In this document: piece by piece, positions 1 to 64,000 of the stretch
Numbering within the stretch: position 1 is the stretch's first letter
How the letters are laid out: every line of letters begins with the position of its first letter
Source: Tetradesmus obliquus
Lineage: Eukaryota; Chlorophyta; Chlorophyceae; Sphaeropleales; Scenedesmaceae
Length of the DNA stretch: 64,000 nucleotides
Direction of reading: 5' to 3'
Assembly: GCA_030272155.1 (NCBI GenBank)
Contig: CP126192.1
Location: 8,032,501 to 8,096,500 of the forward strand
Position numbers and translations under genes: made by a program
Notes under the pieces: generated by a model
What the model saw: the letters and a program-made list of their open reading frames with translations, nothing else
Databases searched by the model: none
Told to the model about the DNA's origin: nothing

Positions 1-3000
1 GCAGGCAGGTGAGTGATTAAAGGTGCACGCTGCAGCGCAATGTACTGGCGCGTCTCAGGCACTGCAGCACACAGCCAACACGCAGACAAATGAGTGATCA
101 TAGGAGTAAGCTGCAGCAGGATGTACTGGTGCATTTCAGGCACTGCAGGCAGCCAAGTAAAAGCGCAGACGGTGTGGCTCTAGTTGCCTCAGGATGGTGA
201 TCATAAGTGTGCGCTGCAGCACGATGTACTGGTGCGTCTCGGGCACTGCAGCACACAACATACAGCAGAGACGCAGGCGGTGTAGCTTCAGTGGCCTTGT
301 GTGAGTGTTGTTAAAAAGTAAACTGCTGCACGATGTACTGGTGCGTCTCAGGCACTGCAGGCGGCAGAAGAGCAGATGGATGGAACATTACCAGTGATGT
401 CTGAGCAACAGTATACTGTGTGCATCAGCAGCACATGTGCACTGTGTACAATGGCACAGTTCACGCAGCTGATCATCGACTCCTCCACTGCCCTCTGCTG
501 CTGCTAGCATTATAGCGACATGCAAGCAGCCGCAGCCCAGCGGCCGCCGCCAAAGCCCAGCGCCTCACCCACCAAAGTAAGCAGCAGCAGCAGGGTGACC
601 GCGGCCGTACATGACAAGCTACGTGTTAAACAGCTATTGCTGGCGTCACTACAATGTCTAAGCCACCACTTCATCACTCACCGACAAAGATCAGCAGCGG
701 CAGCAGGATGACTGCCGCATACATGATGACGGCCATGAAGGTGGAGCGCCAGCCAAAGGCCTGAGACAAGCCTCCACCCAGCACAGGGCCTAAGATGGGA
801 CCTGCGGCAAAAGGCAAGTATGGGCAATGAAGGAGTTTGTACAAGATCAGCACGTTTGTGATACAAGCCATGAGGGTGGAGCGCCAGCCAAAGGCCTGAA
901 ACAGGCCGCCACCAAGCACAGGACCCAAAATGGCGCCTGGAGTGACACGCAGGGATTTGAACAGCAATTTATCAGTAAGTAAAGGCCAGAAGGTGGAGCG
1001 CCAGCCAAAGGCCTGCGAGAGCCCACCACCAAGCACCGGGCCCAGGATGGGACCTGCGGCGACAGACAAAAGTGATGAAAAGAGACGAACACCAACAAGT
1101 TTGTGGTGCATGTTCATGACATGAAGATGGAGCACCAGCCAAAGGCCTGGGACAGGCCACCACCCAGCACAGGGCCCAGGATGGGACCTGCAGTTGACAC
1201 ACAGATTGGTGACACAGCAAGCTTGCTTAAGAATCAGGCCTAGTCAGTGCTGTTACTATGCAGCCAAAGGCCTGAGACAGCCCGCCACCCAGCATGAGGC
1301 CCAGACTGAGACCTGCGGCAACGCGCAGGGATTTGAAAACAAACGGCCTAGTCAGCAAGGTTTAGGTACAAGCCGTGAGGGTGGAGCGCCAGCCAAAGGC
1401 CTGGGAGAGCCCGCCACCCAGCACGGGGCCCAGGATGGGACCTGCGGCAATAGGCAAGAATTCGCGATGAACGAGTCTGTACAAGACTAGCACGTTCGTG
1501 GTACAAGCCATGAGGTGGAGCGTCAGCCAAAGGCCTGAGGCAGCCCACCACCAAGCACCGGGCCCAGGATGGGACCTGCAGTGACAGACAAGTGATGAAA
1601 AGAGACGACCAACAACATGTTTTTGGTACATGTTCATGACATGAAGGTGGAGCGCCAACCGAAGGCCTGAGACAGGCCACCACCCAGCACAGGGCCCAGG
1701 ATGGGACCTGCGGTGAAAGACAAGTGATGAAAAGAGACGAACACCAACAAGTTTGTGCTGCATGTTCATGACATGAAGGTGGAGCGCCAACCGAAGGCCT
1801 GAGACAGGCCACCACCCAGCACAGGGCCCAGGATGGGACCTGCGGTGAAAGACAAGTGATGAAAAGAGACGAACACCAACAAGTTTGTGCTGCATGTTCA
1901 TGACATGAAGGTGGAGCGCCAGCCAAAGGCCTGAGACAGCCCACCACCTAGCACCGGGCCCAGGATGGGACGTGCGGTGGCACACCAGGTTTCAAAAACA
2001 GACGCTTAGTTAGCACATTTCTGGTGTAAGCCATGAAGGTGGAGCGCCAGCCAAAGGCCTGGGAGAGCCCGCCACCCAGCACAGGACCCAGGATGGGACC
2101 TGCAGTTGACACACAGTTTGGTGACACAGCAAGGGGCAGGCCTAGTAAGTAAACTTGTTGGTGCAATGTCATGCAGCCAAAGGCCTGAGACAGCCCGCCA
2201 CCCAGCACACGGCCTAGGATGGGACCTGAAAGCACGCATGGTTGTGAATAAAGACAGCCTTGTCAGCAAGTTGTCTTTGACGGCCATGAAAGTGGAGTGC
2301 CAGCCAAAGGCTTGGGAGAGCCCACCACCCAGCACAGGACCCAGGATGGGACCTGCGGTGACACGATTCAAAGATATTGTCACAGGAGCCATGCCTGGTT
2401 AGCAAAGTTGTTGGTGCAATGCTATGCAGCCAAAGGCCTGTGACAGTGTAGGCGGGGTGATGTCTGCCAGCATGCTGTGTTCTGGCAACAGTAAGGGTAC
2501 ACAAATGTCTAGCACAGCATGCACCTATGCACGCTCTAGTGTCTGCATAGCGTCTGCAGGACCGCAGAGCGCTTACCAATGAACATGGGTATGTTAGAAA
2601 TGCCCATGGCAGTGCCCCTGTGTGCAGGTGGAATGATGTCAGCCAGCATGCCGGCGCCTGTGGAACTAAATGCTGCTGCCACGGCACCCTGCAGACAAGC
2701 ACCAGCAGCAGCAATACATTAGCTCAGCGGTTCATACGCATTGATGCAAGACGGGGATGATGTCAGTCAGCATGCCGGCGCCTGTGCTGCTGAACGCTGC
2801 TGCCACTGCACCCCGCAGACAGCACCAGCAGCATCAAACACATGCCATGCTTCACAGGTGGGATAAAGTCAGCCAGAATGCCGGCGCCTGTGATGCTGAA
2901 TGCTGCCGCCCCTGCACCCTGCACAAAGAAAGCAGCAAGGGCACATGGCTGATGTTACGTGGATGTGCCAACAAGTTGGTGTTGGCAGCCCTGTGCTGCT

Positions 3001-3533
3001 GAACGCTGCTGCCACTGCACCCGGCACAGAGCACCAGCAGCAAACAAACAAGGCTGCTGTCAGTCGACTGTGTTAAACATGTCAATGAAGGAAAAGCGTG
3101 TATGTTGTGTGGTGGCGCAATGTCAACAGCATCAAGCACCCCTCACCTGCACCCCCTGAACCCAATCAGAAACTGGATGCTGCGCGAGAAGCAACACGCC
3201 AGGCTGGCACCAATGAGACCCAATGAACTTCCAATAACGACAAACGCCCTCACCTGCACGCCCTTGAATGCAATGAGAATTTGAAAGCTGGGCGAAAATC
3301 AGCACGCCAGGCTGGCACCAATAAGACCCAACAATAACAGGCACCCCTCACCTGCACGCCCCTGAAAGCAATGAGAAATTGGATGCTGGGCGAAAAATAA
3401 CACGCCAGGCTGGCCCCGATAAAGGCCAAGATGCTGCCGATGAAGACTGGCCGCCGCCCAAACTTGTCGGCGCAAGGGCCAAAGAAGAGTACGGCGAGCG
3501 CCACCGCAAACATGTACACTGGCGGCGGCAGCA

Positions 3534-3607
<74 letters not shown>

Positions 3608-4164: not shown

Positions 4165-4199
<35 letters not shown>

Positions 4200-7485: not shown

Positions 7486-7526
<41 letters not shown>

Positions 7527-8227
7527 TTCAGCAGCAATGCCATCACAGAGTGGCTGCAGCTGCGCTGCCTCGCGCTGGAAGATGTGGTGGCAGCAGCAGC
7601 AGACCCTGACATAGATGAGAACACTGACCTGTGCAACATATGTGGCGGGGACGGCTCAGACCCTGAGCGGCAGCTCAAATGCTGCGAAGGATGCTGCCAG
7701 AGCTTCCATGCAGGCTGCCGGCCTGCATGGGGCACAGAAGCAGCAGCAGCAACAGCAGCAGCAGCGGCGGCAGCAGCACTAGCAGGCGCATTTGGGTCTG
7801 TGGCAGCACCCAGTGACGAGCAGGGTGCAGCAGAGATCTGCCCATATTGCCAGCTTAGCACAGCAGCAGCAGCAGCAGCAGTAGCAGCTGGTGCTTGTGC
7901 TGGTGCTGCTGCTGCTGCTGCTGACAACAGTGCCATGGCAAGCAGCAGTGAGCAGAAGCAGCAGCAGCAGCAGCAGCAGCAGCACCACCACCAAGAGTGT
8001 GAAGCAGGTGACAAACAGCAATCGCCAGCGCAGCCTGAACAGCCGCAGCTTGAGCATGTGCAGGAGCAGCCATCGGATCTGGCTACTCAGGCACAGCAGC
8101 AGCAGCAGGAGCAGCAGTGGGAGTGCGAGCCAGGTGACGAACAGCCATTGCAAGCACAGCCTGAACAGCAGCAGCTTGATCACGTGCAGGAGCAGCCATT
8201 ACATCTGGCTATTCAGGCACAGCAGCA

Positions 8228-8270
<43 letters not shown>

Positions 8271-16042: not shown

Positions 16043-18522
16043 GCAGCAACAGCAGCAGCAGGTAGCCCGTTGAGCTTTGGTTGTTTACCAGGGACTCACT
16101 TCATTCACTCTGGTGCCAGCAACGAGGCAGCTTGGCACACACCAGCCAGAAGCAGCAAGCACTGGCAGCACGTGCGATGCATGGGGAGCACCAGAGCGGC
16201 ACCAGAAGTCATGACAGTTGACATACTTTACCAGATGTTTCTGCTTGAAAAGAGGCCTGGAGGGTGCATGCTAATCTGGCTGCCGGCATAACCCTGCACT
16301 CCCGCGTGCAAGACTGATGTGTCCTTATCGCTCACTCAACTGCGCTGCGCGCGCCAGCTGCTGCATTAGCTCATCATCATCGTCTGCTGCTGAGCTCATC
16401 ATCGTTATCATCATCAACGATGTTAAATCAAATAAGCCACAGCTCACCTGTGCTGCGCGCGCCAGCTGCTGCATGAGCTCGTCAAGGCGGCGTGCCACGC
16501 GGATGATGCTGCCCTCAAAGATGTCCGTCATGCCAGCCACCTGCATTGCACAAAAACAACACACTCTAATAAAAAAAACAGTGCAGTCACATTGGACTTC
16601 ATTCGTCGTGTGCCGCGCACATGGTGCAGGTGGTTAGTTCTGCACCACATGGATGACGCTTGTCCCAAATTGGCTGCTGTTGTTCGACCACTTCAGCGCA
16701 AGGCATCACAATGTTGTCAATCCTCCCACCTCTGCGAAGCTCTTGCCCTTGGACCAGTTGTAGAAGACGTCCATGAGGCTGGGCCGGAAGCCCCCTAGGT
16801 ACTCCTCCTCGTCCACCTCCAGCCCGGCCTCGCGCGATATTGACGCAATCCCGCGTGCGGCGTCCTGCAGGCCCAGCAGTAACGTGTGTTAGTGACAATG
16901 TAATACATTTGAAACTGACGGCCGCCCAGGTACTCCTCCTCATCCACTTCAAGGCCGGCCTCGCGAGAAATAGAGGCGATGCCGCGTGCAGCGTCCTGCA
17001 AACACAACACGAGCATGTTATGACATGGTTGTTAGGGTTCTGGACAAACCCGGAGGTACTCCTCCTCATCCACTTCGAAGCCAGCCTCGCACGATACTGA
17101 CGCAATCCCGCGCGCGGCGTCCTGCACGCAAGCAAGGAAGATTGTTGGTCAACATGCACTTCATGGATCTGCCCAGGTACTCCTCCTCAACCACCTCGAG
17201 GCTCGCCTCGCGTGATATCGACGCCATCCCGCGTGCGGCGTCCTGCAAACGCAACACGAGCATGTTATGACATGGCCGTTAGGGTTTGCGACAAACCCGG
17301 AGGTACTCCTCCTCATCCACTTCGAGTCCGGCCTCGCGCGAAATAGATGCGATGCCGCGTGCGGCGTCCTGCATGCAAGCAAGAAAGGATGTTGGTCAAT
17401 GGGCAGTGTGTATGAATCAGAAGCTGCCCAGGTACTCCTCATCATCGACCCCAAGTCCAGCCTCGCGAGAACTAGATGCGTATGTTAGTGACAACGTACA
17501 CATTTGAAACCGATTGCCGCCCAGGTACTCCTCCTCATCAACTTCAAGGCCCGCCTCACGAGAAATAGATGCGATGCCGCATGCGGCGTCCTGCAGGCCC
17601 AGCAATAACGTGTGTTAGTGACAATGTAACATATTTAAATTGACGGCTGCTCAGGTACTCCTCCTCGTCGACTTCAAGGGGAGCCTCGCCGAATGCAACG
17701 CGATGCCGCGCGCAGCATCCTGAAGGCGCGCAAACTGTAAATGAGCCGTGGGTTGCTGTAGTGAGATGTGAAAATCATTGGTACAGCTGGAATGCTGACG
17801 ATCACCAATGCACTGTCGCTTGCTGTCACAGCATCTTGCAACAGCCAGAGAACCACAGCCGGCGGCAGCCACCACAGCAGGCAGCAACATCCCCCAGCGG
17901 GATTTGTCAGGCTCAAGGCTTTTTGCCTTCAATTGCAGCCTACGCCAGCATGCCAGGGCATGCCAGGGCATGATGAACAAGTAAATTGATTGGCTCACCT
18001 GGAGCTGCCGCAGCGGGTCTGCCAGCTGCTTTGTGATGGCCACCTCCTCATTGGTGCGGTCTGTGGGCGTGAGGCAGGACACCAGCGCCAGCAGCTGGTG
18101 CTTGTCCAGCCCGTGGAAGCAGCCGTTGAACATGAGCTCTGCAGGGCGGGCAGAATGATCATTCAAAAGTTGACTGTTATCTGACATCAGCATCTCTGTA
18201 GCGCAGGCCGAGGGGCAAACGGTTTGATAAGCTTGCAGCAAGCGGAGCAACGAGATATCCTGCAATGCATACAGCGAAAAAGCAGCCGCAACAGACAGCA
18301 AAGCGCTACCTGCTATTGGATCATATGTACATGCACCGGCCACCCAAACATTGACGTTGAAAGTCAGCTCACCCACGGTCAGCAGCTCGTCTGCTGTGTC
18401 GATCTCGCAGGCTGCGCGGCCTTTCAGCAGCACGGTGCCGTCAGCAGCCACGTGCCCCAGCCGCCGCAGCACCTGCAGCCTCGCCTTGCTCTCCGCCCTG
18501 AAACTGGCCAGCAGCGTGCCCT

Positions 18523-18558
<36 letters not shown>

Positions 18559-18633
18559 ATGGTTTGTGTGTCCGCATACAAAAGTGCAGCCTCGCCTTGC
18601 TCTCCTCCCTGAAACTGGCCAGCAGCATGCCCT

Positions 18634-18687
<54 letters not shown>

Positions 18688-21309
18688 ATGGTTTGTGTGT
18701 CCGCATACAAAAGTGCAGCCGAGCCTTGCTCTCCTCCCTGAAACTGGCCAGCAGCGTGCCCTGCATGACAGGCAGCATGACGTCACATGTGTTGTTGTTG
18801 TCATAAAATGTTTACAGACGACCAGATGTGCAGCACCTGCAGCCGAGCTTTGCTCTCTTCCCTGAAACTGGCCAGCAGCGTGCCCTGCAGGACAGGCAGC
18901 ATGACATCAGATGTGTTTATTGTTGTCATGAGATGTTTACAGACGACCACAAGTGCAGCACCTGCAGCCGCGCCTTGCTCCCCTCCCTGAAACTGGCCAG
19001 CAGCGTGCCCTGGCGGCAGCAGCAGCAGCAGCAGCGGGAAAAGCTCTTGACGCTGGTAACTTCAGCCCGTTCCCAGCCTGCATGATACATTTATCCTTAA
19101 AACTGCTTACACTTGGTCGAGACAAGTGCAGAAAACATGTTCACTGGCTGCATGAGCCGCATGCAGCAACTCCCACCTTGAGCTGTGCCTTGAGCTCTGC
19201 TGCGCGCTCGTCCAGTGCAGCTTTCTTGGCGTAGAGCGCAAAGCGCTCACTGTCGCGCTCCGCCTGGAACACTGCAGCAGCAGAAGCAGCAGCAGCAGCA
19301 GCAGGTAGGTGCCAGCTATGTAACATACGAAGCACAGCGGCAAATGCCCGCAGCTGCAGTCTGAGGCTTGCAATGGTGCTGGTGCTCGGTTGCTGCTGAA
19401 AGTGCCAGCCAGCGACGTCGACGCCTCAGGGTTTGAGACAACCTGCTGGTTGGCTGCTGCTGCTGCTGCTGATGCTGCACATGTTAATGCTAGACTGGCT
19501 GACTGTTTGATTTGACTGCAGCTGCTGCCTTTGGCTCACCAGGGTTCTTGACCAGCTGCTGCCCCAGCTGCTGCTATGCTGCTGCTGCTGCTCATGTAGC
19601 TGCTAGACTGGCCATGTTGGCTGCATCCGCTGCCTCAGGCTCACCAGGGTTCTTGACCAGCTGCTGCTCCAGCTTGTTCACGTTGGCCACAGCAGCAGAC
19701 AGCTCCTCATCACCTGCAACCCCAGCAGCAGCGGCAGCAGCAGCAGCGTGGAATCAGCACACAACGCGGCAGCGGTGTGGGACAACACACAGCTGACACA
19801 GTGTACAAAGAGCGAGTCACTTTGGCGCCATGCGTTGCCACACAGCAGGCTCATCGCCTGCACAGCCAACAGCGTGACGCTGTCAGCGTGAATGTATCAG
19901 CGCAACATTTCAGCTCAACTGCTGCACTTCTACCCAGACAGCCCCATGTCTCCAACCGGGTCCAATACAACTCACCCACACGCTCAACCCCCTGCCAACA
20001 CAGTCATGATGCTGGGCATCAGCTCACGCACACCTGACAGCCCCATGTCCTCAACCAGGTCCAGCAGCAGCAGCAGCAGCAGCAGCAGACATGCCCCCCC
20101 CCCCCCTGCACACTCGCTTCTCGTGCAGCTCACCATCCAACCTCAACTGTTGCTACCCCTCACCTGCCAGCCCCATGTCCTCCACTGGGTCCAGCAGTGG
20201 CAGGCCAGCCGGGTAGCGCTTGGCCATGTCCTGCAGGGCAGAAGACACAGGCAAAAATAGCAAACTCAACACAGTGCATTACGTCGGACTGTTGTGGTGA
20301 GTAAAAGACACATACAGGCATCCATACACGCTTCTGCGACACACCTCTTGACATAACCAAGCGCGATCTGCCCCACCTGCTACAGTCTGCAGGAAAGGCA
20401 CGTAATGCAGCAGCGTGATCCAGAGATCACACCGCACCCAACAATTATGATATGAGACATGGCTAGTGAGATTCGCGCAATGTGTCAAACCCAGTCTCTG
20501 CTTCTCTATGCAGATCTATCTGCTACTCCCACCTGCAGCACGCACAGCAGGCGCGGCGCAGCAACCCCGAGGTTCCGCAGCAAACTTGGCTGATAAGATG
20601 CATACTTTTTTATTCTAGATTGCTTGATTTGCTTGCAGAAGCTGCTATATCCCTGTTCATCTCACCTGCAGCACGCACAGCAGGCTCTGCCGCGCCTCAA
20701 AGGGCCTCAGGTGCTCCGGCAGGCCCACCCGTAACACAGCACAGCACAGCACAGCAGCCACAAAACCCCTTGTGCAACGCCCGTACTGGCGACGAGACAT
20801 TGCGGGTGACTTCTCCGCAGCGAGTTCAAGAAAAGAATGTTGTACATTCACTCTCTGCATGTCTCTGCTGCAGTCAAAATTTGCAAAGGTTCCAGCCATG
20901 CTGCTTCTCTCACCTGTAGCACGCAAAGCAAGCTCTGCCGTGCCTCAAAGGGCCGCAGGTCTTCCGGCAAGCCCACCCGTAACACGCTGATGCCTGTTAC
21001 TAACGTTAATGACACAGGCAGCACCGCCATCTCAGCAGCCGGCGGCTGCTGCTGCTGCTGCTGCTGCTGCTCGCTGCCCTTGCCTTTGCTGCCTTTCTTG
21101 CCGCCATCTGCTGCTGCTGCGGTTCCATTGGCTGCACTGCCGCTGCTGCTGCTGCCTGCCTTGCTGCTTCCTGCCAGTCCTACAGGAGCCGGTTTTGGCT
21201 GGCCCTCTTTCAAACTGCCTGCTGCAACCGGCAGCAGCAAATCAATGATGTAGTTTGCTGCTGCATCGTCAACTGCATCTGCTGCTGCTGCTTCTGCGCT
21301 GCCGTTGGC

Positions 21310-21348
<39 letters not shown>

Positions 21349-24300
21349 GTGGGCGCTGGGTTTGCGCAGTACACTGACCACAATGCCCCATCCCCACTCA
21401 TCCTGCAACCAGGTGATACAAAGTCAGCAGACGAAGCATGTCAGCAGCAAAGGTGCACGGGTGACAGCTCAAAACGCATCACACTGTGAAGCTGTGCATG
21501 TTTGCTGAGAAGAAGTACAGCTGCTGCAATCATAATGACGCCACACAACAATTGACATGCAGCTAGCCATGGCTGGCATGACAGTGACGCATAAAACCAT
21601 CAACAGCCGAACCCCGATTGAGAACAGAATCAAACCCTCTCACTGTGCCCTCCTTGACGCGTATCAGCCGACCCGGCTGCAGGAAAGCTAGGCACCTGTC
21701 AGGTGCCTGGATGGCTGCTGCAATGCAGGGACGCATAAAATAGCACAACATAACACAACATCACATGACAGCTGCACAATTCAACGCAGCGCTACATAGC
21801 ACAGCAGCAGCTGCTGCTGCAGCTACACCTACACCATAAATCACCCAGTCCAACCTAGCTAAGTCCTCTCACCGCGCCCTCCTTGACGCGTATGAGCCGT
21901 CCCGGCCGCAGGAAAGCCAGGCACCTGTCGGGTGCCTGGATGGCTGTTGCAATGGCGCCCTCTGCTGCTGCCAGCTGCCCCCGCAGCGCCTTGTACTCAG
22001 ATATGGCGGCCTGCAGGCACAGCAGCAGTTCAGCAGCAGGCATAACAAGCGAGCTGAGAAACAGCAGCAAGAACCAGCTGCCGACGCAGGCAAGGACATC
22101 ACCATGCAGCCAACCAAGGCACTGTGGATATGCACTGTCTAGCTGTGTTGCTAAAGGTTATCGACGCACATGGTTGCAACAGTGCTACTCCTGCCTGGCA
22201 GCTTTGCTGTACCGCGACCATACACAGCTGGCACAAGCACTCCCGGCGGCGCAGCATAAGCCTGAGAACAAGAGACACCAGCAGTGCTGCAATCACAAAC
22301 AGACCAGCCGCCGCCTCACACCTGCCCCTCCAGCTGCAGCTGCTCCGACTGGGCCTCAATCTCCTTCAGCTCAGCCTCCATCTGCAAAAATAACAGAGAC
22401 AGTGACAGTGACAGTGACAGCAGCAGCATGAGCGTGACAGAGCAAACAGTGTGTAGATGAAGCAACACGTGATGGTTTTGTTCAAGGTCATGGAACGCAC
22501 CAAATACCTACAAGGTAGTCAATTGTGTGCGCTGCGCACTGCCCGTCATCACAGTCTAGATGGTGACAACCTCACCTTGGGCGTGGCCTGCTCCTGCTGA
22601 AACTCCTTGAAGCTGGTTACACAACAACGATTCACACAACGCAACATAGCCAGGTGCTATCCCTGACACACACCGCACAGCTCACCTGAGGCATGGCCTG
22701 CTCCTGCTGGAACTGCTGGAAGCTGCTAGCGCCACACGGCTAGACCTACGGCAACTGTGACTGATGCAACAGAGACAGGCCAACAGCCGCACCTGAGGCA
22801 TGGCCTGCTCCTGCTGGAACTGCTGGAGGCTGTTTGCAATCACGCACGCTGCCATTGGAATGCAATTCAAACCCTACAGCAAACTCTCAAAATCCTAAAT
22901 ACACTCTTAAAGCCTCACCTGGGGCATCGCCTGCTCCTGTTGGAACTGCTGGAAGCTGTTTGCGATCACGTACTCCAGGTCGTGCGTGCCGCCCTCCACG
23001 CGCTTCATGAGGTTGAGCAGCGTGTAGTAGCTGAGGCGGAAGCTGCTGAGAAGGGGGGAGGGCTTGCCCTGCTCATGTTGTGTGGCGGAGTGCAGTTGTA
23101 CAGTGCAGCAGCATTCACAAGTTAAACAAAGCTTCATCAGGTTCAGCAGCATGTAGTAGCTCAGTCGGAAGCTGCTCAGCAGGGGAAAGGGCTTGCCCTG
23201 CAGCAGCAGCAGCAGCAGTGGCGGGAGTGGCGGCTTAAGCAGCAGCAGCATGAAGTTGAGCAGCGTGTAGCAGCTTAAGCGGAAGCTGCTCAGCAGAGGC
23301 GAGGGCTTGCCCTGCGAGCAGCAGCAGCAACAACAGCTCTCATAATCACACGAGCCATCAACAAAGGCCCCGCAGCTGCACGATGCCCTTGCAAACGACA
23401 AATGATCATCTTGCATCCAGCTGCTTGGTCAAAAACGTAGTGATCCCTCACACCACTAGCACCCCCCAACACCTGCACCATGCCCTTCACACCCAGCTGC
23501 AGGATTCATGTTCTAAGCCTTGTGTTGAGTACAGGCCTCGCAGCCGCCCCCACCTGCACCATGCCCTTGCAGGTCTCCAGTTCCAGGCTCTCATCAGCAC
23601 CCAGCTGTTACACTTGTTCACATGAAAGTCACAAAATAATATTGAAGCCACGCCGCACCTGCACTATGCCCTTGCACGTCTCCAAATCCAGGCTCTCGTC
23701 CAGGCACACGATGACCGTGCCGCGGTCGTCCTTGCCGCACACATGCAACACATGTGCAGTACTCGCCCCACCCACCCAAGGATGGGGACGCGAAACCAGA
23801 TGCCAACGACAGGCTCACACAGGCAGGCTGATACATGAAGCCAGCCGCACCTGCACGATGCCCTTGCAGGTCTCCAGGTCTAAGCTCTCATCCACGCACA
23901 CGATGACCGTGCCGTGGTCGTCCTTGCCGCGCCGCCCCGCGCGCCCGCTCATCTGGATGTACTCGCCGCTGCCGATGTACCTGCGCAAAATGACAATATT
24001 GTAACACAAATGTAACAAACTTTGACTTCAGACAGCGCCCACTCATCTGGATGTACTCGCCGCTGCCGATGTACCTGGAAATTCATCAGCATCAGTGTTA
24101 CAAGGCATGACGACCATCATCAGAGCGCCAGACAGTTAAACCGCTGCAGTTGCCTTGGAATACGACGTGCTTGACGGGCGCCGCGTAGCTGCGCTACATG
24201 TGCATGGATTTTACAGAGCCTTGCTGCACTGATGATGTATGAAAGCAATGCATGTGTTGATAAGTGACGCGACAATGGAGGCGGCAGCAGCAAATTCAAG

Positions 24301-39592: not shown

Positions 39593-42500
39593 TTAGACAG
39601 TGGCGCGGGCCTGGAACTCCTCTGTTGCCTTGCTGCCGAAGTTGACGTCAACGGACTTGCTGTCTGCTGCACGCAGTGCGTTGGCGCGCACAATGCTGGC
39701 GACAGTGTTGACCAGCAGCTTCACGTCGTCCAGGGGGTTGCCTGCAGGACAGGTGGGTTTGACTTTGTGTTAGTTTGACCAGGATTGGTTTGACCAAGCG
39801 TGACAGTAACAGCAGTTGCCTTGCAGGACGCGCTGCATCATGCTATCTTCTGACAGAAGTCTGCGCTGCGTAACCGCATAGCACGCAGCAGGCCTGCTTA
39901 CGCATCCACATGCCGCTGCTGCAACCCCAGCTTTGCACACAAATAAACAGCTGAACAACCAACAGCAAACAAATAAACCAACCTGGCACCACGGTCTTGT
40001 ACAGGTAGCTGTCGAAGGTCATCTTCTGCACGTAGCTGTCCTCGCACATCTCCACAAAGGCCTCGCGTGCGGGGTTGCTGCGGTAGAAGACCTTCTGCAG
40101 GATGTCCAGCACCTTGTAGGTGGTCCAGTACTTGCGGTCCCACCTGCAGCAGTAGCAGGGGTGATGCTGGTGGTTAGTTTGCTGCTTATCGCCATCCAAA
40201 ACTTGCTGTGCCATGTTCTCTGGGCGCACCACAAAAAAAAACCGGGTCTAGACGCAGCTGTAATGCTGGCACAACTAAGACGATTGTGCCAGCAAGCAAA
40301 CAAAGCCCAAACATGCAGTCAAACTCTGGTCAAACACCGGTCAAACTCACTTGTCCAGGTACACGCGGATGGCGGACTCGCCGCACATCTTCTTGCCGTT
40401 CTCGCTGGCCTCCACGATTGCCTCAGCACACATGCGGCCAGACTTGGCTGCAAAGTAGATGCCCTCGCCGGAGCACTTGGTCACGTAGCCGGCAGCATCA
40501 CCGACCAGAGCCACGCGGCCCTTGCAGCGCCGCGGGCGGGGGTGCTCGGGGATGGGGTGCGCCTCCACCCTGGATGTTCGGAATGGAAGATTTTGGAAGG
40601 CGGAGCACAGGCAGCAGAGCATGTCAGCCAATGGACAGTGCAAGTCGCGTCCGTAGATGTCATGCTACCTGACACCGGGGGAGCACAATTCTGCTGCTCT
40701 TAACGCACCCAACACCTGAAACTAATCTACTACTTCTGCATTAAACCATCAACACCTTGGAACCCCACCTGATGATCTTGCCGCCCTCGGTCTTGACCTT
40801 TGCCCTGTCGCGGGTGGCCTGCTGGTACTGCTTGATGGCGGTCTTATTCACCACTGTGCCGGTACCCACAGCCACGTGGTCGTACTTGGGAAACACCCAG
40901 CCGTAGAAGTCCGGGGACACGTCATCGCCCACGTACATCTCAGCCAGGTTCTCGTAGTACTTCATCTTGTCGTCTGCAGATCAGGAGAAAGTCCACATCG
41001 TGAGTTCACAGTGGCTGCGCATGCAGTTGTCAGCCACGTACATTTAAGCCAGGTTCTCGTAGTACTTCATCTTGTCGTCTGCAGATCAGGATAAAGTTCA
41101 CAGCATGAGTCAGTGGTTGCGCATGCAGTTGTCACGCGCATACATCTCAGCCAGGTTCTCGTAGTACTTAAAATAACTTGTCGTCGTCTTCATGGCAGAG
41201 ACAGTTGACAGCGTGACTTCACAGAAGTTTGATCTTCTTGGCCACGCGGCTGTTGGCGCCATTGGCACTCATGACACTTAGAAATGCAGCCAAATGACAA
41301 GATAACATGTCAACAACACCGATGCAACGCACCTGGGATGCGGATGCGCTCCTGGAAGGCGATGGCGTAATCGTACTCGCCAGCGTCAATCTCCTTGGCC
41401 ACGCGGGAGTTGGCGCCGTCAGCACCAATCACCAGGTCCACCTCCAGGGTTGCGGGGGTGCCGATCTTGGAGCCCTCGGCGTAGCCGTTGTAGTGGATGG
41501 TGATGGGGCCGTCAGCCACTGCAGCAGCAGCAGCAGCATGAAGATGAAGTGCTTTGTCAGTTACCTCATCGGTACTGATTGGCAGGTCAATGGGAGCCAT
41601 CTGCCACTGCAAAGCAAACTAGAACGCGAAAAACAACACGACAGCGTGCATGTATTGAGACGCTGCACCTGTGTGGATGTCCTGCCTGCAAAACAGCCAG
41701 CACAAACCACCCTCCTAACACCTGCCACAGATCAACCTGGCTGCTCGGCCTACCAGGCTGCTCCATCTTCATCAACAGGCCATTCACAATCTTGGCGCCG
41801 TCCTTCTCCGCGCGCCCTCCCTCCCAACCACAACTAATACACAATCAACAAATCGTTTTATCCTGCAATGTTCCTGCAATATTCAATCCTGCAATCAACC
41901 CAATCAAGCCCACCTGGCTGCTCCATCTTCATCATGAGGCCGTTGATGATGTTGGCGCCGTCCTTCTCTGCACGCTTGCGCAGGTAGTCGTCCATGACCT
42001 CGCGCCTGCACATGCCGATGTACTCGGTCTCGCTCAGCGTCTTGCCCACGTCCACCTCGCGGTTGCTGGGGCTGATCATCTTCATCTTGGTCACCTGTAT
42101 GGTGCATGCAGACACACATCATCATAAGCGGCAGCGAAGCAGGAATTGAAAGGGCGTGTGTAGAGTGGAGCCCAAGAGCCCACGCATGGGAATGCTTAAC
42201 TCGCTGTAGCGCAAGGCAGCCAGCATAGGAGCAGGCTCATGCTGCATGCCATCAGGCAAGCGTGCATCAGAAGCTGCCCTGCAGCACCACCTGATTTGCA
42301 TCTACAAGTACAGTAGCACCGTTGGGAAATCGAACAACATACTCAAAGACAAACTGTATGTTCCTGCTGTCCTGCGCACCTTGCGGTCAATGATCTCCTG
42401 TGGCAGGTCAAACTCCTGCACCATGCACAGGGGGATGGCACCACCGCATGGCTGCAGGCAGCAGCAGAAGCAAAACAGAACAGCACGCGAGCAGCCGCAG

Positions 42501-47303: not shown

Positions 47304-50239
47304 ATGAGACGATTTCCAGTGCTGGTTTCACTTGTTGCTGCTGGCTTCGGCCTAATAGCCTTGTATAGCCATTATTACAATCAAGACGTGCACGTTGGCG
47401 CTGACTCGTGGAATTTGGGTTCGTCAGCGTCGCTTTCGCACGCCCAGGCTGCAGGCACCACCAAACTGCAGCTGTGGCCTCTGGACCGCATCGACGTCGC
47501 ATTGTTCCTCGTTATAGCAGTATGTCTGTCTTTAGCTGGAGGTGCAGGGATAGGTGGAGGGGCTGTACTGGTGCCCGTGTTCATCATGCTGCGAGGTGGG
47601 CACTCGGACAGCCTGCTGACAACAATCCGTAATGTATATGCATTAAAACCGCGTCTGTGCTGTAAGTTGTGCCGTCGGAGCATACGTACTGGCGGATCGG
47701 GCAGTTTTTCACGTGGGGAGCACGTCAGCTGTAGTGAGCCTTGCCTGCCAGACAGTGCAGGCTGGCAGGCCTGTGTTTCACGTGTACTGAGCCAGCAGAG
47801 GCATACAACGGACACCTTAGCATGCATCAGTGCCATTTCACTTTCAGACTTGATACTTGTCGGTGTTCGCACCCGCAGGATGGCCCACCTCAACGGCTGT
47901 GGCCATGTCCAACGTCACTGTCCTGGTGAGCAATGCCACAACATTTCCCTCTCTCAATACAGCTGTTTCACAGCAGCTGCAGGTGTACCTACTTGGGTTT
48001 GCTTGCGGTCATCACCCACCTCTGGCAAACATTCAGCCTTCAGAGCACCATCCCTCTTCCCTTACACCACTGTGTGCACTGGCAGGCCCTCGGCGCCTCA
48101 CCTGCCAGGAAACGTGCACTGGCAATTGCTGCAAGTCATGCATCTATAGTCTCACAACCACTGTGCTTCTGGCATGTGACAGGCCACATCTCCCCGTGCT
48201 GCCGCGTCGACTGCCACTGTACTCAGACCCAATGCGGCAGCTTGCCACACTGCATTGGCACCATGAAACAACAGCCATGATTGCAAATAGCAACTGCTGC
48301 TGCTGCTGCCACTGTTGCTGCTGCTGCTGCTGGTGATCTCACCACCACCCTGGCAGGGTGGCAGCTTTGCCAACTTCATCTGCAACGTCAGCCGCCGCCG
48401 GTCAAACGGCGCGCCCACCGTTGACTGGGAGCTGATCCTCATGATGGAGCCCACCACCATTGCGGGAGCACTCTTTGGAGCCATGCTCAACAAGGTGTGC
48501 GACAGAACTTAGAAGCAGGCAGTGCTATTTGTACACGTAGCAACGTGCTGTAAAGCGTCGCCACCTGAAGCTAGGATCCTAGGTCCTCCGGAGGTAGATG
48601 TGCTACTGCAGCAATGCTGGCGCACTGCTCGGCACCATGCTCAACAAGGTGGGCTGCCAAAGGTTTCAATTAATTAATGCAGTTTAACTGGGAGCTGATC
48701 CTCATGATGGAGCCCACCACCATTGCAGGGGCGCTGTTTGGCGCCATCCTCAACAAGGTGGGCGGCAGGTGTGAGATTGTATACGTACTAACATGTTTTT
48801 ATTGATATCACCACTTGTAGTTCAGAGGTAGGTGTGCAACTTCAGCAATACACTCAATTCAGCTGTGCTTTGCATATTTGCTGACAACCTTTTACCTGTT
48901 GTTCCTGCGCCGCTGTGTGTCCGCTGCTGGCCCTGCTGTTGCAGCTGCTGCCAAACTACGTAACCACCTACCTGCTGACTGCTATGCTAAGCTTTATGGC
49001 AGTTAGACTGTACCATAAGGGCCGCCAAGCCTACACAAAAGAGACACAGCTCTTCAAATCAGCACGGCATGCGGCCAGAGCAGCAGCAAAGGCAGCAGCA
49101 GCTGCAGAGCTGCAGCAGCAGCAGGTGCAGCAGGCGCACTCCAACACCAGCAGCAGCACCAGCAGTAGTGTGGGGTTAGCTATCAGGACGACAACAAACA
49201 GCAGGGGTGGGCGCAACGCAGTGAATGCAGCAGCTGCTGCAGCTGCCAGCAACTATGTCGGCAGCAGAGGGATTGCTAGGAGCTTCACTAACAGTTTCAG
49301 CAGACTCTCATCACCTATGATTGTGGTGGCAGATGGCTCAGCAGCAGCAGCAGCAGCAGCAGCAGGTAGTAGCCCAAGGCGGCAGTATGCAGCAGCAGCA
49401 GCAGGACTGATTTCCGGCACACCCCGCTCGCCTTCTCCTTGGCTGGGCAGTAGCAGGGACCAGCAGCAGCAGCAGCTGTATCAGCCATTGCTGCAGCCTG
49501 GTACGCCGCGCGAGCAGGGATTAGCAGCAGATTCTGAAGCGGCGCAGGATGCATTAGATGGTGTGGCAGCGTGGTTGCCAGGCATGCTGCAGAGTGATGA
49601 CACAGCACGCCTTGCAAACCTGGCTGATGTGTCCACGCTGTGCCAGGTGCGGATTGTGCTGGACTGCTGCAGTAATGCATTGGATGGTAATGACACAGCA
49701 CGGCTCGCAAACCTGGCTGATGTGTCCACGCTGTGCCAGGTGCGGAGTTGTAGCAATAGCGCTGAACTGCTACAGAAATCGAAGCCAGCTGCAGCTGTTA
49801 CTGCTGCTGGAGCCATACAGAGGCTAGTGCTGAGCTTTAGCTGATGCATGCCTGTCTGCGTTATGTATCCTGCTCTGAAGGATCACGCGCTGCCGCTGCT
49901 GCTGCTGCTGCTGCTCCTCCTTTTGGTCGCCTGCAGGGTGACACTTTAGGTGACAACGTAGACGCCATGGTGGTGCTGCTACTGTCAAGCGACACACACA
50001 TGTGCTGCTGCTGCTGATGCTGATGCTGCTGCTGATGCTGCTGTGGTTGTCTGCAGGGTGACACTCTGCGTGACAACGTAGACGCCATGGTGGTGCTGCC
50101 GCTGCCGGAGGGTCATTTGCTGCTGCTGCTGCTGCTGCCGCTGCTGCTGCTGCTGCCGCTGTGGTTATCTGGAGGGTGACACCCTCGTGGACAATGTGGA
50201 TGCCATGGTGGTGCATCCACTGTCACCGATAGTGTTTTT

Positions 50240-50282
<43 letters not shown>

Positions 50283-51835
50283 ACTACTGCTGTGGTTGCA
50301 TGCAGGGTGACACTCTGGGTGACAACGTTGACGCCATGGTGGTGCTACCACCTTCAAACACACACTCATGTGCTGCTGCTGCTGCTGTTGCATGCAGGGT
50401 GACATTCTGGGTGACAACGTGGACGCAACGGTGGCGCTGCCACTGTCAAACAACACACACATGTGCTGCTGCTGCTGCTGTTGCATGCAGGGTGACACCC
50501 TCGGTGACAACGTAGATGCAATGGTGGTGCTGCCGCTGCACCAGACCTTCTCATCTTCCTCATCCTCTAGGTCATCCTCAGATGCAGGAGCAGCGCCAGA
50601 CACTGCAGCGGCAGCAGCAGCAGCAGCAGGTGATGTAGAGGCTGGCTGGGATGCTGCTGGCGATGACCTGTCCCAGCCGCTGCTGGCAGCATACCATGCT
50701 GCTGCTGCAGCTGCTGCTGCTCCAGCTGGTGACGAAGTTCACGGCGAGCTGCGCGGCGTCACTGCTGAAGTTCATAGTCACCAGCTGCTGCAGCGGCAGG
50801 TGTCACCAGACCTGCTGATGCATGTGGCAGATGATGACGTTGCCGCTGGGCAGCGTGACGTGGCAGGCAGTTACACTTCATCGGTGCCGCTGAAAGCAGC
50901 CGGAGGGTCGGCAATCAGTGCTGTGTCACACCCAGATCAACCAGGTGGGTGTTGCTTTGTGCGAGTCCTGTCACCAACCAAACGTAGGCTGCTTGCATAA
51001 TCTGAGAACGCACAGATATCCCGCGACGCCGCCTCAAACTTCCTGTTTGCACAACTCAGCTGTAGTGGCAGTAAGCGTGGTGCGTTTGGTCATATTGTGG
51101 GTTTGATGATGTGGCGGCTGGGCAGCGTGACGTGGCAGGCACTTACACTACTATGGTGACGGTGAAAGGAGCAGGGGCTCCCTCGGCTGTCAGTGCTGCG
51201 CCGCACCCTGAGGACTCAGGTGGGTGTTGCAGCAGGGAGTTACCGTGACTACCTGCTGTACGTTTTTAGCACCTGCGCAGAAACTGTGACAACTTTCTGT
51301 TCCTACAAGCCTAACAGCAACGAGCAGTGCCAGTAAGCGACTGGTATGATGGTGGATGATGTGGCGGCTGGGCAGCGTGACGTGGCAGGCAGTTACAACT
51401 CATCGGTGACGGTGAAAGGGGGCGTTGGGTCGGCAATCGATGCTGCGCCTCAACCAGATGTTTCAGGTAGGTGTTGTGCAGGGAGTGATTGAGGGGTTTT
51501 GAAGTGTGTCGAACAGCAACAACATGCCAGCCAGTGCCACTGCCTGTAGCTCTGCTCCTTGCCTGGCATGAGACTCACAATGTCCTGCCACCCTGCATAC
51601 CACCTGCTGCTGCTGCTGCAGCCAAGGCAGTGCAGCAGGAGCCCTGCCTGCCCCTGCCGCACCTGCTGGCGCTGCTGCTGCTGTCGGGCTGGGTTGTGGC
51701 CTCAGATATTGCCCAGGGCTCTGTGCGCTGCGGCAGCTGGCGCTACTGGGCTGTTTACACTAGCGCTCCAGTGTTCAACTGCCATGAGACTCACGCCGTC
51801 CTGCCACCCTGTACACCACCTGCTGCTGCTGCTGC

Positions 51836-51908: not shown

Positions 51909-53361
51909 ACAGCAGCCAAGGCAGCGCAGCGGGAGCCCTGCCTGCCCCTGCCGCACCTGCTGGCACTGCTGCTGCTGTCGGGCTGGGTGGTTGCATCAGA
52001 CATTGCCCAGGGCTCTGTGCGCTGCGGCAGCTGGCGCTACTGGGCTGTCACGCTGTCTGTGCTGGCGCCAATCGCTGTTATACTGCTGGTGTTCAGGCGC
52101 ATCCTGCTGCGGTGAGTTGTAAAGATATACACACTGTGTAGGCAAAATAGTTTCCTGCTTGGTTAATTGCACAAATTGTGGCGCATCCTGCTGCAGTGAG
52201 CTCAGACCCAGGCCCAGTGTCATGTGCGTGGTGTTTGGCAGCTGGCGCTACTGGGCTGTCACACTGTCTGTGCTGGCGGCGATCGATGTGATACTGCTGG
52301 TGTTCCGGCACATTCTGCTGTGGTGAGCTTAGCCCCATGCCCGACACAGCTTTCGTTAGGTTGGTTCTGATAGCCAAGCAAAAGGTTCAGGAGGGTGCAT
52401 ATGGTGTGCAGTAGCTGTTTGAAGCGCTGTTGCAACGGGGCAAGCACCTGTTGATAGGATGTGCATGGTATCGCAGCTGGCGCTACTGGGCTGTCACGCT
52501 GTCTGTGCTGGCGCCGATTGCTGTGATTCTGCTGGTGTTCAGGCGCATCCTGCTGCGGTGAGTTGTAGGAACTTATACACAATGCTTGAGCAAACAGGGT
52601 GCCTGCTCAGTAGCTTGCGCAAGTTGTGGCGCATCCTGCCGAGCTAAGGTTGGCTCCATGCCCAGTGTCATGTGCGTGGTGTTTGGCAGCTGGCGCTACT
52701 GGGCTGTCACACTGTCTGTGCTGGCGGCGATCGATGTGATACTGCTGGTGTTCCGGCACATTCTGCTGTGGTGAGCTTAGCCCCATGCCCGACACAGCTT
52801 TCGTTAGGTTGGTTCTGATAGCCAAGCAAAAGGTTCAGGAGGGTGCATATGGTGTGCAGTAGCTGTTTGAAGCGCTGTTGCAACGGGGCAAGCACCTGTT
52901 GATAGGATGTGCATGGTATCGCAGCTGGCGCTACTGGGCTGTCACGCTGTCTGTGCTGGCGCCGATTGCTGTGATTCTGCTGGTGTTCAGGCGCATCCTG
53001 CTGCGGTGAGTTGTAGGAACTTATACACAATGCTTGAGCAAACAGGGTGCCTGCTCAGTAGCTTGCGCAAGTTGTGGCGCATCCTGCCGAGCTAAGGTTG
53101 GCTCCATGCCCAGTGTCATGTGCGAGGTGTTTGGCAGCTGGCACTACTGGGCTGTCACACTGTCTGTGCTGGCGCCGATCGCTGTGATTCTGCTGGTGTT
53201 CAGGCGCATCCTGCTGCGGTGAGTTGCAGCCATGTAGATGTTGGCTATGCGCTCATCGGCGTGCACAAGTTGTGGTATCTGTATGGTATTGCCGCCAGCG
53301 CAAACCCTATTCAGTGCAAACCCAGATTGCATGTTGCAGATGTAGGCTTGTGACACTGCTG

Positions 53362-54908: not shown

Positions 54909-54942
<34 letters not shown>

Positions 54943-57817: not shown

Positions 57818-58354
57818 GTGACTGTTGTGTATGCTGCAAATGAAGTGTGTTTGAACTGTATGCTTGAGAATACTAATTTGATAGTGATGTTGAGGCAGTG
57901 GCTGGGCACTTATGAAGTGCAAGTTCTCGAAAGCCAGGCCTCGTCACTCGCCTTGCAACCTACACCCTCCATGAGCATCGCTTCGACGGCGACTTTCACC
58001 GCAAGGAGTCAAGCCGTTTAGATACCATTGTTGTGCCATTCATTACCTTATCGCACATTGTGCGTCGGCCAGCTGTGTCCTGCGCTGTATTGCCCTCAGA
58101 CTCAAAGGGTGACGCAGTAAGCTGCGACTGAAGACATTTCTGGTTCATTTGCATACCTACTCTGTTTTTTGCCGAGATTTTACTGTGCACAAGTTGCACT
58201 ACCCCACGGCACCTGCTGCAGCAGCATCACCGCCTGCTGTCTGAGCGCAGCCGCTGCATCACCTCCAGCCATTCTCATAAGACTTGAGTTAAAGAACCAC
58301 AGCACATCTCATTGCCGGAGCTGCCATATCGGACACGACGGGAGCTCGCAGCAA
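57818..58354. other. Region between the divergent 55905 ORF and sulfotransferase gene
   Basis: About 540 bases that should contain the promoter of the plus-strand sulfotransferase and possibly that of the minus-strand ORF. Nothing further is recognised. Confidence 0.3.
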
Positions 58355-60161: not shown

Positions 60162-60199
<38 letters not shown>

Positions 60200-60929: not shown

Positions 60930-60934
60930 TGTAA
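60930..60934 (+). terminator. TGTAA poly(A) signal for the sulfotransferase gene
   Basis: A TGTAA pentamer on the coding strand, 869 bases after the stop. It is a candidate green-algal polyadenylation signal; an earlier unrecognised signal is possible. Confidence 0.35.
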
Positions 60935-61900: not shown

Positions 61901-61904
61901 CAGC

Positions 61905-62140
61905 TGCTCCGCTTGACTGCTGCTGCCTACTGCCCGGCTGCGCTAGCTACCTCCAGCAGCCGTGCTGCTAGCGCTGAAGGGAAAGCCTCCTGTGCTGCTG
62001 CTGTGTGTGGCTGCAGTGCTGCCTGCAGCTGCCGCGCTTGACTGCTGCTGCCTACTGCCCGGCTGCCCTAGCTGCCTCCAGCAGCCGCGCTGCCAGCGCC
62101 GAAGGGAAGACCTCCGGTGCTGCTGCTGCTGTGTGTGGCT
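61905..62140 (-). repeat. Two copies of the bZIP terminal exon end
   Basis: The coding end with stop near 62052 (ALAARLLEAARAAGQ) recurs near 61905-61990, separated by about 125 bases, with the flanking stretch CCGCGCTTGACTGCTGCTGCC also repeated. The second copy lies in the presumed 3' UTR. Confidence 0.8.
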
Positions 62141-64000
62141 GTAGTGCTGCCTGCAGCTGCTGGTGCGCCTGCAGCAGGTGCTGCAGCCTCTGAGCTTGCT
62201 GCTCCAGCACCTCATTCTCAGCCTGCAACAGAAAAACAACAGCAATGACAACAGCATGCAGCAATGCAGGGTGAATTCTTGGCTGGCTGAACATGCACAT
62301 GAAAATGTGCAGCGCAATTACCTGCAGCTGGCACAGCGGGTCAGGAGCTGCTAGGGCAGCTGATGCCGTTGGTACCAGCGCCAGACTTCATTGTGTAGCT
62401 TGAAGTGCAGATGCCATCATTTTCTGGAGGTTTGCATGCATGCTTCACCAACCGCTAATTGCATGTGCACGCACGCACGCACGCACAGCAAGCACGCATG
62501 CATGCATTGTTGGCTGCAGATGTGTCAAAGTGTGCAGCTGAAGCAATAGCCACACCCCTGCCTGGCCCCTCTCCTGCAGCTGGCCAGTGCTCTGCTCCAG
62601 GCGCTCAATGGCCTCCTTCCTCCTGGCATACGACCGCGCAGCATGCATGCATAATCAACTGCAGCTTCGACTGGCAAAAGCAATAGCATACATCTCCCTT
62701 ACCTGCAGCTGGCCAGTGCTCTGCTCCAAACGCTCAATTGCCTCTTTCCTCCTGGCATATGACCGCGCAGCAGCCAGCCTGTTTGCCAGCTTGCGATCAA
62801 CGCAGCCGCCATCATCGCTGCCAGCTGCTGCAGCCATCTCCGCCACTGCTGCTGCTGCTGCTGCTGCCAGGGATGCGCGGCTGCTCTCTGCTGCAGCTTC
62901 TGGCTTACTGCTAGCTGCTGTGCACGCTGCGGCACCAGCAGCAGCAGGCTTGCCAGCCTTGCGTGTGCGCTTGGTGCCAGCAACAGCAGCAGCAGCAGCA
63001 CCAGCAGCCCTGGCTCTCTTGCTGCCCCGCGTAGCTGCTGTGCGCCGGCGCACGACATTCAAGTCGCTGTCACTGCTTGAAGCCCCCTTACCCTCATCTT
63101 CATGCCCACCTGGATGAAATTCATCCAAGGCATCAGATGCCGCTGCTGCTGCTGCTGCTGCAGTGAAATGTACCTCCGCCTGCCCCATCCCCTGCTCATA
63201 GCAGTCTGCCTCATCGTCAGAGCTTGCAGCAGCAGCTGCCAACGCTGCTGCAGCTGCTGCTGCAGCGCGCCGCTGTCGCACCAGCACAGGATACTGCTCA
63301 CCACCTGCGCTGGCTGCTGCAGAAGCTGCTGTAGTTGGGCCAGCTGTAGCAGCAGGCCTCTTCTCCTCAACAGCCTGCACTGGACAGTGCCTCTTCTTGG
63401 GCAGCACTGCTGCAGCAGCAGTACCTGCTACACCATACTGCTCACCCAATGCTGTATACTGCTGCGCCTGGCCACCAGCTGATGCCTCTGCTGTTGTGCT
63501 GCCTGCAGCAATGCCGCTGCCCGGCCTGCACGCCGTCACTAGCTCACCGCACTGCAAATCCTCCTGCTGCGCTGCCTCACCAACCTCCTGCTTGCTCTGC
63601 ACATGATCACGCAGCAACGAATTGCTCCTTTTGCTGGCAGCTGCTGCAGCGCCTGATCCTGCTGCAGCCTCCTTGCCAAGCCTGCTGCGCTTCTTGCAGC
63701 CTGCCCAAGCCGGTACCTCTGCTGCTGCTGCTGCTACTGGTGTTTTGACACCTGTCACAGCACTGCCGCGGGCACTTGCCACTGCTGCTGCTGATGATGA
63801 TTTGGCTGCTGCAGCTGGCTGGCTTGAGCTATTGCTGCACACCTCTTGCAAGACTCTACTGCCTCGAGCAGCAGCAAGGGCAGCAACAGAAGACGCTGAC
63901 AGCCGTGTTGACTGCTTGCTGCTTGCGGCACCTGCTGCTGAGAATGCACTGCCTGCCCCTGCTGCTGCTTGAACAGCAGCAGCATCAGTGCCGCTACTGC
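62052..64000 (-). CDS. bZIP transcription factor; 5' end beyond window
   Basis: A DNA-binding dimeric regulator. Two exons are seen, 62703..64000 (open to the edge) and 62052..62222, joined in phase 0. The N-terminal part is Ala/Ser/Gln-rich with basic and acidic patches (KKRSRLGKEA; SSDDEADC; a second Lys/Arg-rich block near 62980-63040). The basic region reads NRLAAARSYARRKEAIERLEQ. The leucine zipper spans the intron: Leu residues at exact sevens in ERLEQSTGQLQ then AENEVLEQQAQRL. Position +8 after the invariant Asn is Tyr, where nearly all bZIPs have Arg. The protein ends soon after the zipper (ARLLEAARAAGQ). Target genes are unknown. Confidence 0.85.
62580..62650 (-). repeat. Copy of bZIP basic region and zipper start in the intron
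   Basis: A segment encoding AARSYARRKEAIERLEQSTGQLQ, almost identical to the end of the 62703 exon, lies in the intron downstream of the donor. It ends in CTGCAG followed by GAGAG rather than GT, so the copy has no donor. Confidence 0.88.

What the first reader, a model, noticed from the sequence alone, without database searches (positions are those of the whole stretch)
1..64000. Splice junctions across this window are tandemly amplified by one rule
Seven of the eight genes with clear introns (MFS, J-protein, MTR4, CHLP, Nudix, TauE, bZIP) carry tandem partial exon copies in their introns. Units contain one splice site plus about 40-75 exon bases. Acceptor-side copies lie only upstream of the intact exon, donor-side copies only downstream, as tandem duplication across a junction predicts. 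The intron-less genes and the one-intron PHD gene lack copies. This is seen directly. That it is a genome-wide process making alternative splice sites or new introns (compare the known model of intron gain by tandem duplication of AGGT-containing segments) is inference.
Basis: partly seen in the sequence, partly recalled or inferred. Interest (0 to 1): 0.93.

Follow-up and report, generated by a model that had tools for sequence, protein, structure and literature searches.

The report
Half-exons amplified inside algal introns
In the green alga Tetradesmus obliquus many introns have grown by tandem duplication of the exon-intron border, leaving rows of half-exons with intact-looking splice sites, and these copies change over time almost as if they still coded for protein.

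Summary
The genome is Tetradesmus obliquus (CCT-beta identical over the matched 80%; one contig length equals an NCBI T. obliquus contig). In 80 introns of 17 conserved genes on 13 of 17 contigs, 41 hold tandem copies of an adjoining exon end: 28 donor and 26 acceptor junctions of 160, against 0 of 90 wrong-side and 0 of 160 shuffled. All 17 introns over 700 nt have copies, 2 of 23 under 300 do. Subtracting the arrays gives the array-free length (median 281 against 292). New here: copies keep GT (56/62) or AG (39/41), rarely have a partner splice site, and differ from the true exon mainly at third codon positions (93/79/273 columns). By my argument, neutral copies of one functional exon cannot exceed a 2:1 third-position ratio; 3.17 is observed (CI 2.55-3.95). 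Best reading, inferred: unstable arrays keep exchanging with the true exon, so copies are selected indirectly. Diverged alleles, or translated copies, remain possible. Intron gain is not shown.

The parts
28981..29374 (-). MTR4 donor-side array: true donor after ...[13 protein letters not shown] at 29314, copies at 29168 and 29021
27915..28452 (-). MTR4 acceptor-side array: true acceptor before [21 protein letters not shown] at 27978, copies upstream at 28094, 28214, 28336, 28452
27731..27885 (-). MTR4 donor-side array after ...[12 protein letters not shown] (27825, copy 27731)
26138..26586 (-). MTR4 acceptor-side array before (DH)[18 protein letters not shown] (26198, copies 26327, 26456, 26586)
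25657..26090 (-). MTR4 donor-side array after [20 protein letters not shown] (26030, copy 25657)
25139..25577 (-). MTR4 acceptor-side array before [20 protein letters not shown] (25199, copies 25336, 25452, 25577)
24648..25109 (-). MTR4 donor-side array after [18 protein letters not shown] (25049, copies incl. 24921 and 24648)
23940..24074 (-). MTR4 acceptor-side copy 94 nt upstream of the exon [14 protein letters not shown] (true acceptor about 23980)
23553..23910 (-). MTR4 donor-side array after [20 protein letters not shown] (23850, copies 23658, 23553)
23008..23311 (-). MTR4 acceptor-side array before [20 protein letters not shown] (about 23068, copies 23197, 23311)
22685..22978 (-). MTR4 donor-side array after [20 protein letters not shown] (22918, copies 22792, 22685)
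18460..18884 (-). MTR4 acceptor-side array before the exon with [11 protein letters not shown] (18520, copies 18631, 18760, 18884)
16804..17719 (-). MTR4 acceptor-side array before [20 protein letters not shown] (16864, six further junctions up to 17719)
684..2446 (-). MFS gene acceptor-side array: 13 near-copies around |GPILGPVLGGGLSQAFGW; the lowest-coordinate one lies in the best MFS_1 match
40900..41084 (-). CHLP acceptor-side copy (41078) upstream of the true acceptor (40973)
49936..50538 (+). acceptor-like array (49936 to 50490) in the same region; strand not confirmed
52027..53241 (+). donor-like array with alternating spacing of 211-213 and 235 nt (52111 to 53218); motif clusters also on the other strand

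Best explanation
Segments of about 100-160 nt that straddle a splice junction are duplicated in tandem at the DNA level, repeatedly, in many genes (shown). The true exon stays contiguous with the rest of the exon, so the copies end up inside the intron and are normally spliced out (supported by annotated CCT proteins of standard length; no RNA reads were available). This lengthens introns and accounts for the excess length in the sample (shown). The copies form an unstable array that exchanges sequence with the true exon by unequal recombination or conversion (inferred). A copy with an amino-acid change, frameshift or dead splice site yields a damaged gene whenever it is exchanged into the true position, so in a very large population such arrays are weeded out (inferred). 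Copies therefore keep splice sites and amino acids, change freely at third positions, and let the adjoining intron drift, although they are not normally translated.
For: Copies in 41 of 80 introns with controls 0/90, 0/160 and 6/95. Array-bearing introns minus array span have median 281 against 292 for array-free introns; arrays are 14147 of 40084 intron bases. Variable columns by codon position 93/79/273, ratio 3.17 (CI 2.55-3.95); among copies alone 49/50/143, ratio 2.89 (2.28-3.84); third-position share above that of a 2:1 ratio with P 1e-6 and 0.003. Third positions diverge at the intron rate (353 observed, 312 expected with CpG context), positions 1 and 2 at about 0.3 of it (108 and 85 against 311 and 331). 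Six simulated settings of neutral arrays with one functional exon, exchange included, gave ratios of 1.16-1.42; removing 60% of amino-acid changes from copies gave 3.22 and, among copies, 3.01. Of two neighbouring copies the one nearer the true exon has fewer private position-1/2 changes (42 against 71, P 0.008) at equal third-position changes (83, 84) (pairs within one array overlap, so P is approximate). GT kept in 56/62, AG in 39/41; splice scores of copies are close to those of true sites.
Against: Exchange was not observed, and selection through exchange was not itself simulated: the 60% constraint was imposed. Changes private to one copy (41/47/106) do not exceed the 2:1 bound significantly (P 0.11). 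Surviving amino-acid changes look random (BLOSUM62 mean -0.44 against -0.50 expected, P 0.33) and stops are not clearly depleted relative to missense (5 against 8.1), which fits copies once constrained and then released at least as well. No gradient of constraint along the exon part. The 17 copies with a gap in the exon part and the 8 with a lost splice site show a similar third-position bias. Third-position divergence to the true exon is about 18% whatever the divergence of the intron part, which a simple age model does not predict. One assembly was readable.
Confidence: 0.4

Rival explanations
1. Diverged-allele model: copies are relics of other alleles of the same exon, brought in by unequal exchange between diverged haplotypes or hybridising lineages. 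Each copy coded for protein until it left its allele, then decayed neutrally.
For: A diploid T. obliquus strain with extensive heterozygosity is reported (passages in PMC12636532, and PMC12899622, both citing Biondi et al. 2024). True exon, near and far copies are about equidistant at third positions (17.3, 17.4, 21.0%). Amino-acid changes in copies look random. Two haplotype-swap simulations gave ratios of 2.14 and 5.14.
Against: The annotated CCT-alpha and a near-identical protein from an unnamed source (P0242; possibly an allele or another strain) differ at 1 of 547 residues, far shallower than the copies. Several copies per array each differ, which needs many alleles, not two. In C16 intron 0 one copy differs from the true exon at 9 of 68 sites while the adjoining stretch differs at 7 of 135 aligned bases.
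Confidence: 0.22
2. The copies are translated in place: alternative splicing includes them as micro-exons or alternative ends, so selection acts on their peptides directly.
For: Coding-like substitution pattern; a second annotated protein under the CCT-alpha locus tag duplicates VLESGSVVP and matches 27 nt of a copy exactly; splice sites of copies mostly intact.
Against: Partner splice sites at the far end of copies are rarer than in random intron (2% against 16%, 5% against 22%); spacing is random modulo 3 (37/32/34) and constraint does not depend on it; the micro-exon acceptor scores -17.3; annotated CCT-beta has 532 residues like its relatives.
Confidence: 0.12
3. Plain neutral decoys: random tandem duplications tolerated because they are spliced out, no selection on copies.
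For: Explains position, sidedness, varied breakpoints and intron growth; the exon part is spread widely up to about 90 nt. The class of changes private to one copy does not by itself exceed the 2:1 bound (P 0.11).
Against: Predicts a third-position ratio of at most 2 (simulations 1.1-1.4), observed 3.17; predicts position-1/2 divergence near half the two-lineage intron rate (about 155 and 165 changes), observed 108 and 85.
Confidence: 0.14
4. Assembly artefact.
For: Tandem repeats are a usual place for assembly error.
Against: Copies differ from one another by several percent with a codon-position pattern; contigs are chromosome-sized, and one has the length of the NCBI T. obliquus record.
Confidence: 0.02

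Closest known systems
[quoted passage not shown] 2011 as told in PMC4974935, the potato RdRp case; passages seen)
   Same: Tandem duplication of a segment that carries splice signals; in the potato case also an intron tail plus exon head.
   Different: Here no new intron was seen: copies sit in an existing intron, rarely have a partner site and repeat up to 7 times per junction in the sample (13 units in MFS).
[quoted passage not shown]
   Same: Segmental duplication inside genes.
   Different: There, as cited, duplications containing entire introns; here half-exons with one splice site.
Intronic minisatellites (recalled)
   Same: Tandem units of about 100-150 nt, variable copy number.
   Different: The unit straddles an exon boundary and its exon half changes like coding sequence.
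Concerted evolution of tandem repeats (recalled)
   Same: Array members may influence one another's evolution.
   Different: Only one member of the array is taken to be functional, yet constraint appears on the others.

Membership tests
Intron gain by tandem duplication (AGGT model) | Duplication creates a new intron with both splice sites and leaves the protein unchanged | tested here: not met
   Copies lie within existing introns; a partner site within 60 nt of the far end in 2% (acceptor) and 5% (donor) of copies
Intron gain by tandem duplication (AGGT model) | Intron absent in relatives | not testable with these tools
   No related algal genome could be searched
Tandem duplication across a splice junction | Copies contain intron flank plus exon end and lie on the intron side only | tested here: met
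   54 of 160 junctions, 0 of 90 wrong side; intron part alignable over 30 nt or more in 47 of 103 copies
Tandem exon duplication (mutually exclusive exons) | Whole exons duplicated with both splice sites | tested here: not met
   Median exon part 57 nt, far end mostly without splice site
Neutral pseudo-exons | Near-equal substitution at the three codon positions on the copy branch | tested here: not met
   49/50/143 among copies; private changes 41/47/106
Translated alternative exons | Inclusion in mature mRNA | tested here: inconclusive
   One annotated protein with a very poor acceptor; no RNA reads available

The most novel reading that the evidence does not exclude
Introns of this alga hold spare half-exons that stay under effective amino-acid-level selection, not because they are translated but because they keep being exchanged with the true exon; introns would then act as a reservoir of interchangeable exon ends, and recombination load would be a selective force acting on non-coding sequence across the genome.
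Probability: 0.33. Interest if true: 0.87.

Novelty: new variant of a known kind. Interest (0 to 1): 0.72.

Why it matters
It gives a route to intron lengthening that can be read directly from sequence: in the sample arrays make up 35% of intron bases, and without them introns have the length of array-free ones. T. obliquus has mean introns of 462 nt against 230-302 nt in three other Sphaeropleales and 270 in Chlamydomonas (Table 1 of PMC5966456, passages seen). If the copies are indeed spliced out, the spliceosome must ignore up to seven decoy sites of similar strength beside the right one (about twelve in MFS), a natural test of splice-site choice. If copies are constrained through exchange, selection on recombination load becomes measurable. 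For annotators the copies may be a trap: short reads from exon ends could be placed on them (inference).

Tried and rejected
Codon-usage gene finding in the window was swamped by CAG repeats. Pfam scans of single ORFs named few genes. Whole-exon duplication and cassette exons: rejected, few far-end splice sites; that window next to an acceptor copy is itself intron tail, where donors may be rare anyway. In-frame read-through of arrays: rejected, spacing random modulo 3. CpG hypermutability as the cause of the third-position excess: rejected. The first simulation used too high a mutation rate and was redone. A script stopped with an error after printing the array counts; its placement test was redone. 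The motif scan of the window finds clusters on both strands, so it was used only to locate arrays. Paper searches aimed at this phenomenon or at this genome listed no paper whose title or abstract start describes it; full texts were not read beyond the passages cited. The diploid genome paper (Biondi et al. 2024, Algal Research) did not come up and was seen only as a citation.

Rows dropped: neighbouring Pfam anchors more than 30 residues apart were not tried as introns (25); of 97 anchor pairs tried 80 gave an acceptable GT-AG pair. Of 106 seed copies 103 passed the gapped score before the codon counts.

Full report
WHAT WAS CHECKED. The window is G000:C2:8032501-8096500 of a 104.66 Mb genome in 17 contigs. 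The alga is Tetradesmus obliquus: the joined CCT-beta exons match an annotated T. obliquus protein at 100% over the best local stretch, 80% of the query, and contig C16 (4,414,154 bases) has exactly the length of the NCBI contig that carries CCT-alpha. I placed exons of MTR4 in the window by matches to human MTR4 in three frames, then used Pfam matches of CCT/Cpn60, class I tRNA synthetases and DEAD helicases in the same genome to reach 16 further genes, with 14 fetched stretches and three loci. Even the Pfam list shows the pattern: on C16, CCT matches 45-69, 42-69 and 38-71 lie in a row before the intact 40-101, and 342-376, 348-375, 348-376 follow the intact 325-376.

THE ARRAYS ARE REAL AND COMMON. 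Exon borders were set by frame, Pfam position and splice motif; the motifs are sharp (donor G|GTRMG, acceptor TGCAG|G). Of 97 neighbouring exon pairs, 80 gave a clear intron, in 17 genes on 13 of 17 contigs. With a cut-off of 79% identity over the 24 exon bases next to the junction, 28 donor and 26 acceptor junctions of 160 have copies in the adjoining intron, in 41 of 80 introns. Controls: the same exon ends in the intron on the other side 0 of 90, shuffled introns 0 of 160, exon middles 6 of 95. By intron length: 2 of 23 below 300 nt, 12 of 25 at 300-450, 10 of 15 at 450-700, 17 of 17 above 700. Genes differ: C16 5 of 5, C13 6 of 7, but C2 0 of 7 and C5 0 of 4 (heterogeneity over the 12 genes with four or more introns P 0.006). 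With weaker copies there are 103 at 56 junctions in 43 introns, 1 to 7 per junction, spaced 97-239 nt (5-95%), median 128, random modulo 3; the exon part has median 57 nt.

INTRON GROWTH. Introns with copies have median 683 nt, without 292 (P 3e-9); subtracting the array span leaves a median of 281. Arrays make up 14147 of 40084 intron bases. If the sample is typical this would account for the long introns reported for T. obliquus (462 nt mean against 230-302 nt in three other Sphaeropleales and 270 in Chlamydomonas; Table 1 of PMC5966456, passages seen).

IS THE JUNCTION A TARGET? Sidedness is geometry: any tandem duplication across a junction leaves copies on the intron side. The better question is whether purely intronic arrays are as common. 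Gapped self-comparison finds 28 donor, 25 acceptor and 4 internal arrays. Random placement of segments of the observed size would make 45% internal if ancestral introns resembled the array-free ones, 30% if they were 200 nt. Internal arrays are harder to see: with exon parts masked 16 of 56 known arrays are still detected. Over the powers tried, P lies between 3e-10 and 0.025 in the first case, and between 1.5e-5 and 0.32 in the second. An excess at junctions is likely but not proven.

WHAT THE COPIES LOOK LIKE. They mostly keep the splice site (GT 56 of 62, AG 39 of 41) with scores near the true ones (medians 9.6 against 9.7 for donors, 9.2 against 10.7 for acceptors). They are half-exons: a partner splice site within 60 nt of the far end is seen in 2% and 5% of copies, less than in random intron (16% and 22%).

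THE CODING SIGNATURE. Differences between copy and true exon by codon position are 108, 85 and 353 of about 1950 sites each; counted once per column 93, 79, 273, ratio 3.17 (bootstrap over junctions 2.55-3.95). Among copies alone the columns are 49, 50, 143, ratio 2.89 (2.28-3.84); changes private to one copy are 41, 47, 106. Third positions diverge as much as the intron part; positions 1 and 2 show about 0.3 of it, with CpG context allowed for. This matters because a copy that leaves a single functional exon and then drifts can show at most two third-position changes per change at positions 1 or 2: only one lineage at a time can sit in the functional place. That argument is mine. The excess over 2:1 has P 1e-6 for copy against true exon and 0.003 among copies, but 0.11 for the private class. 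Simulations of birth, loss, overwriting and conversion with one functional exon gave 1.16-1.42.

WHICH EXPLANATION. Surviving amino-acid changes are random in kind (BLOSUM62 -0.44 against -0.50; 5 stops against 8.1 expected), copies with gaps or dead splice sites show a similar bias, and spacing modulo 3 has no clear effect. So translation in place is unlikely. Of neighbouring copies the one nearer the true exon has fewer private changes at positions 1 and 2 (42 against 71, P 0.008) at equal third-position change (83, 84). I favour indirect selection: arrays recombine with the true exon, and a damaged copy is a hazard. I did not simulate that selection itself; imposing a 60% loss of amino-acid changes on copies gives ratios of 3.22 and 3.01. 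A pool of diverged alleles fits several points as well, since a heterozygous diploid strain is on record (PMC12636532, PMC12899622, passages), but CCT-alpha and a near-identical protein of unnamed source differ at 1 of 547 residues. Third-position divergence of about 18% whatever the divergence of the adjoining intron part is not fully explained by either.

ARE COPIES EVER USED? The annotated CCT-beta (532 residues) and one CCT-alpha (547) show no extra peptide. A second entry under the CCT-alpha locus tag has VLESGSVVP twice; splicing in 27 nt of the copy 550 nt downstream reproduces it exactly. The acceptor it needs is very poor (score -17.3), and those 27 nt equal the end of the true exon, so misplaced reads could have produced it. 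It is a lead, not proof. No T. obliquus MTR4 was among the 120 proteins listed.

Noticed in passing
whole window: CAG/CTG triplet repeats are scattered through the window and dominate codon statistics.
   Followed up: partly
window 6714-8609 (+): Long open frame with a 126-nt repeat near 7968-8245, a tandem duplication whose period keeps the frame.
   Followed up: no
window 58121-60058 (+): Open frame of 646 codons with a sulfotransferase domain; the motif scan listed no junction-type cluster in it.
   Followed up: no
G000:C2:8541825 and C2:8545417: Two DEAD-helicase exon matches with identical scores 3.6 kb apart, perhaps a recent gene duplication.
   Followed up: no
DnaJ genes across G000: Several J-domain genes have matches split near residues 33-38, so an intron position may be shared among paralogues.
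   Followed up: no
L039 intron 4 (C16): A minisatellite with a period of 33 nt lies in the same intron as junction arrays.
   Followed up: no
L045 and L052: A CCT and a tRNA-synthetase gene without any copies (0 of 7 and 0 of 4 introns), unlike their relatives.
   Followed up: partly
P0243, OEZ86_010546: Annotated protein with a duplicated nonapeptide that matches an intronic half-exon.
   Followed up: yes
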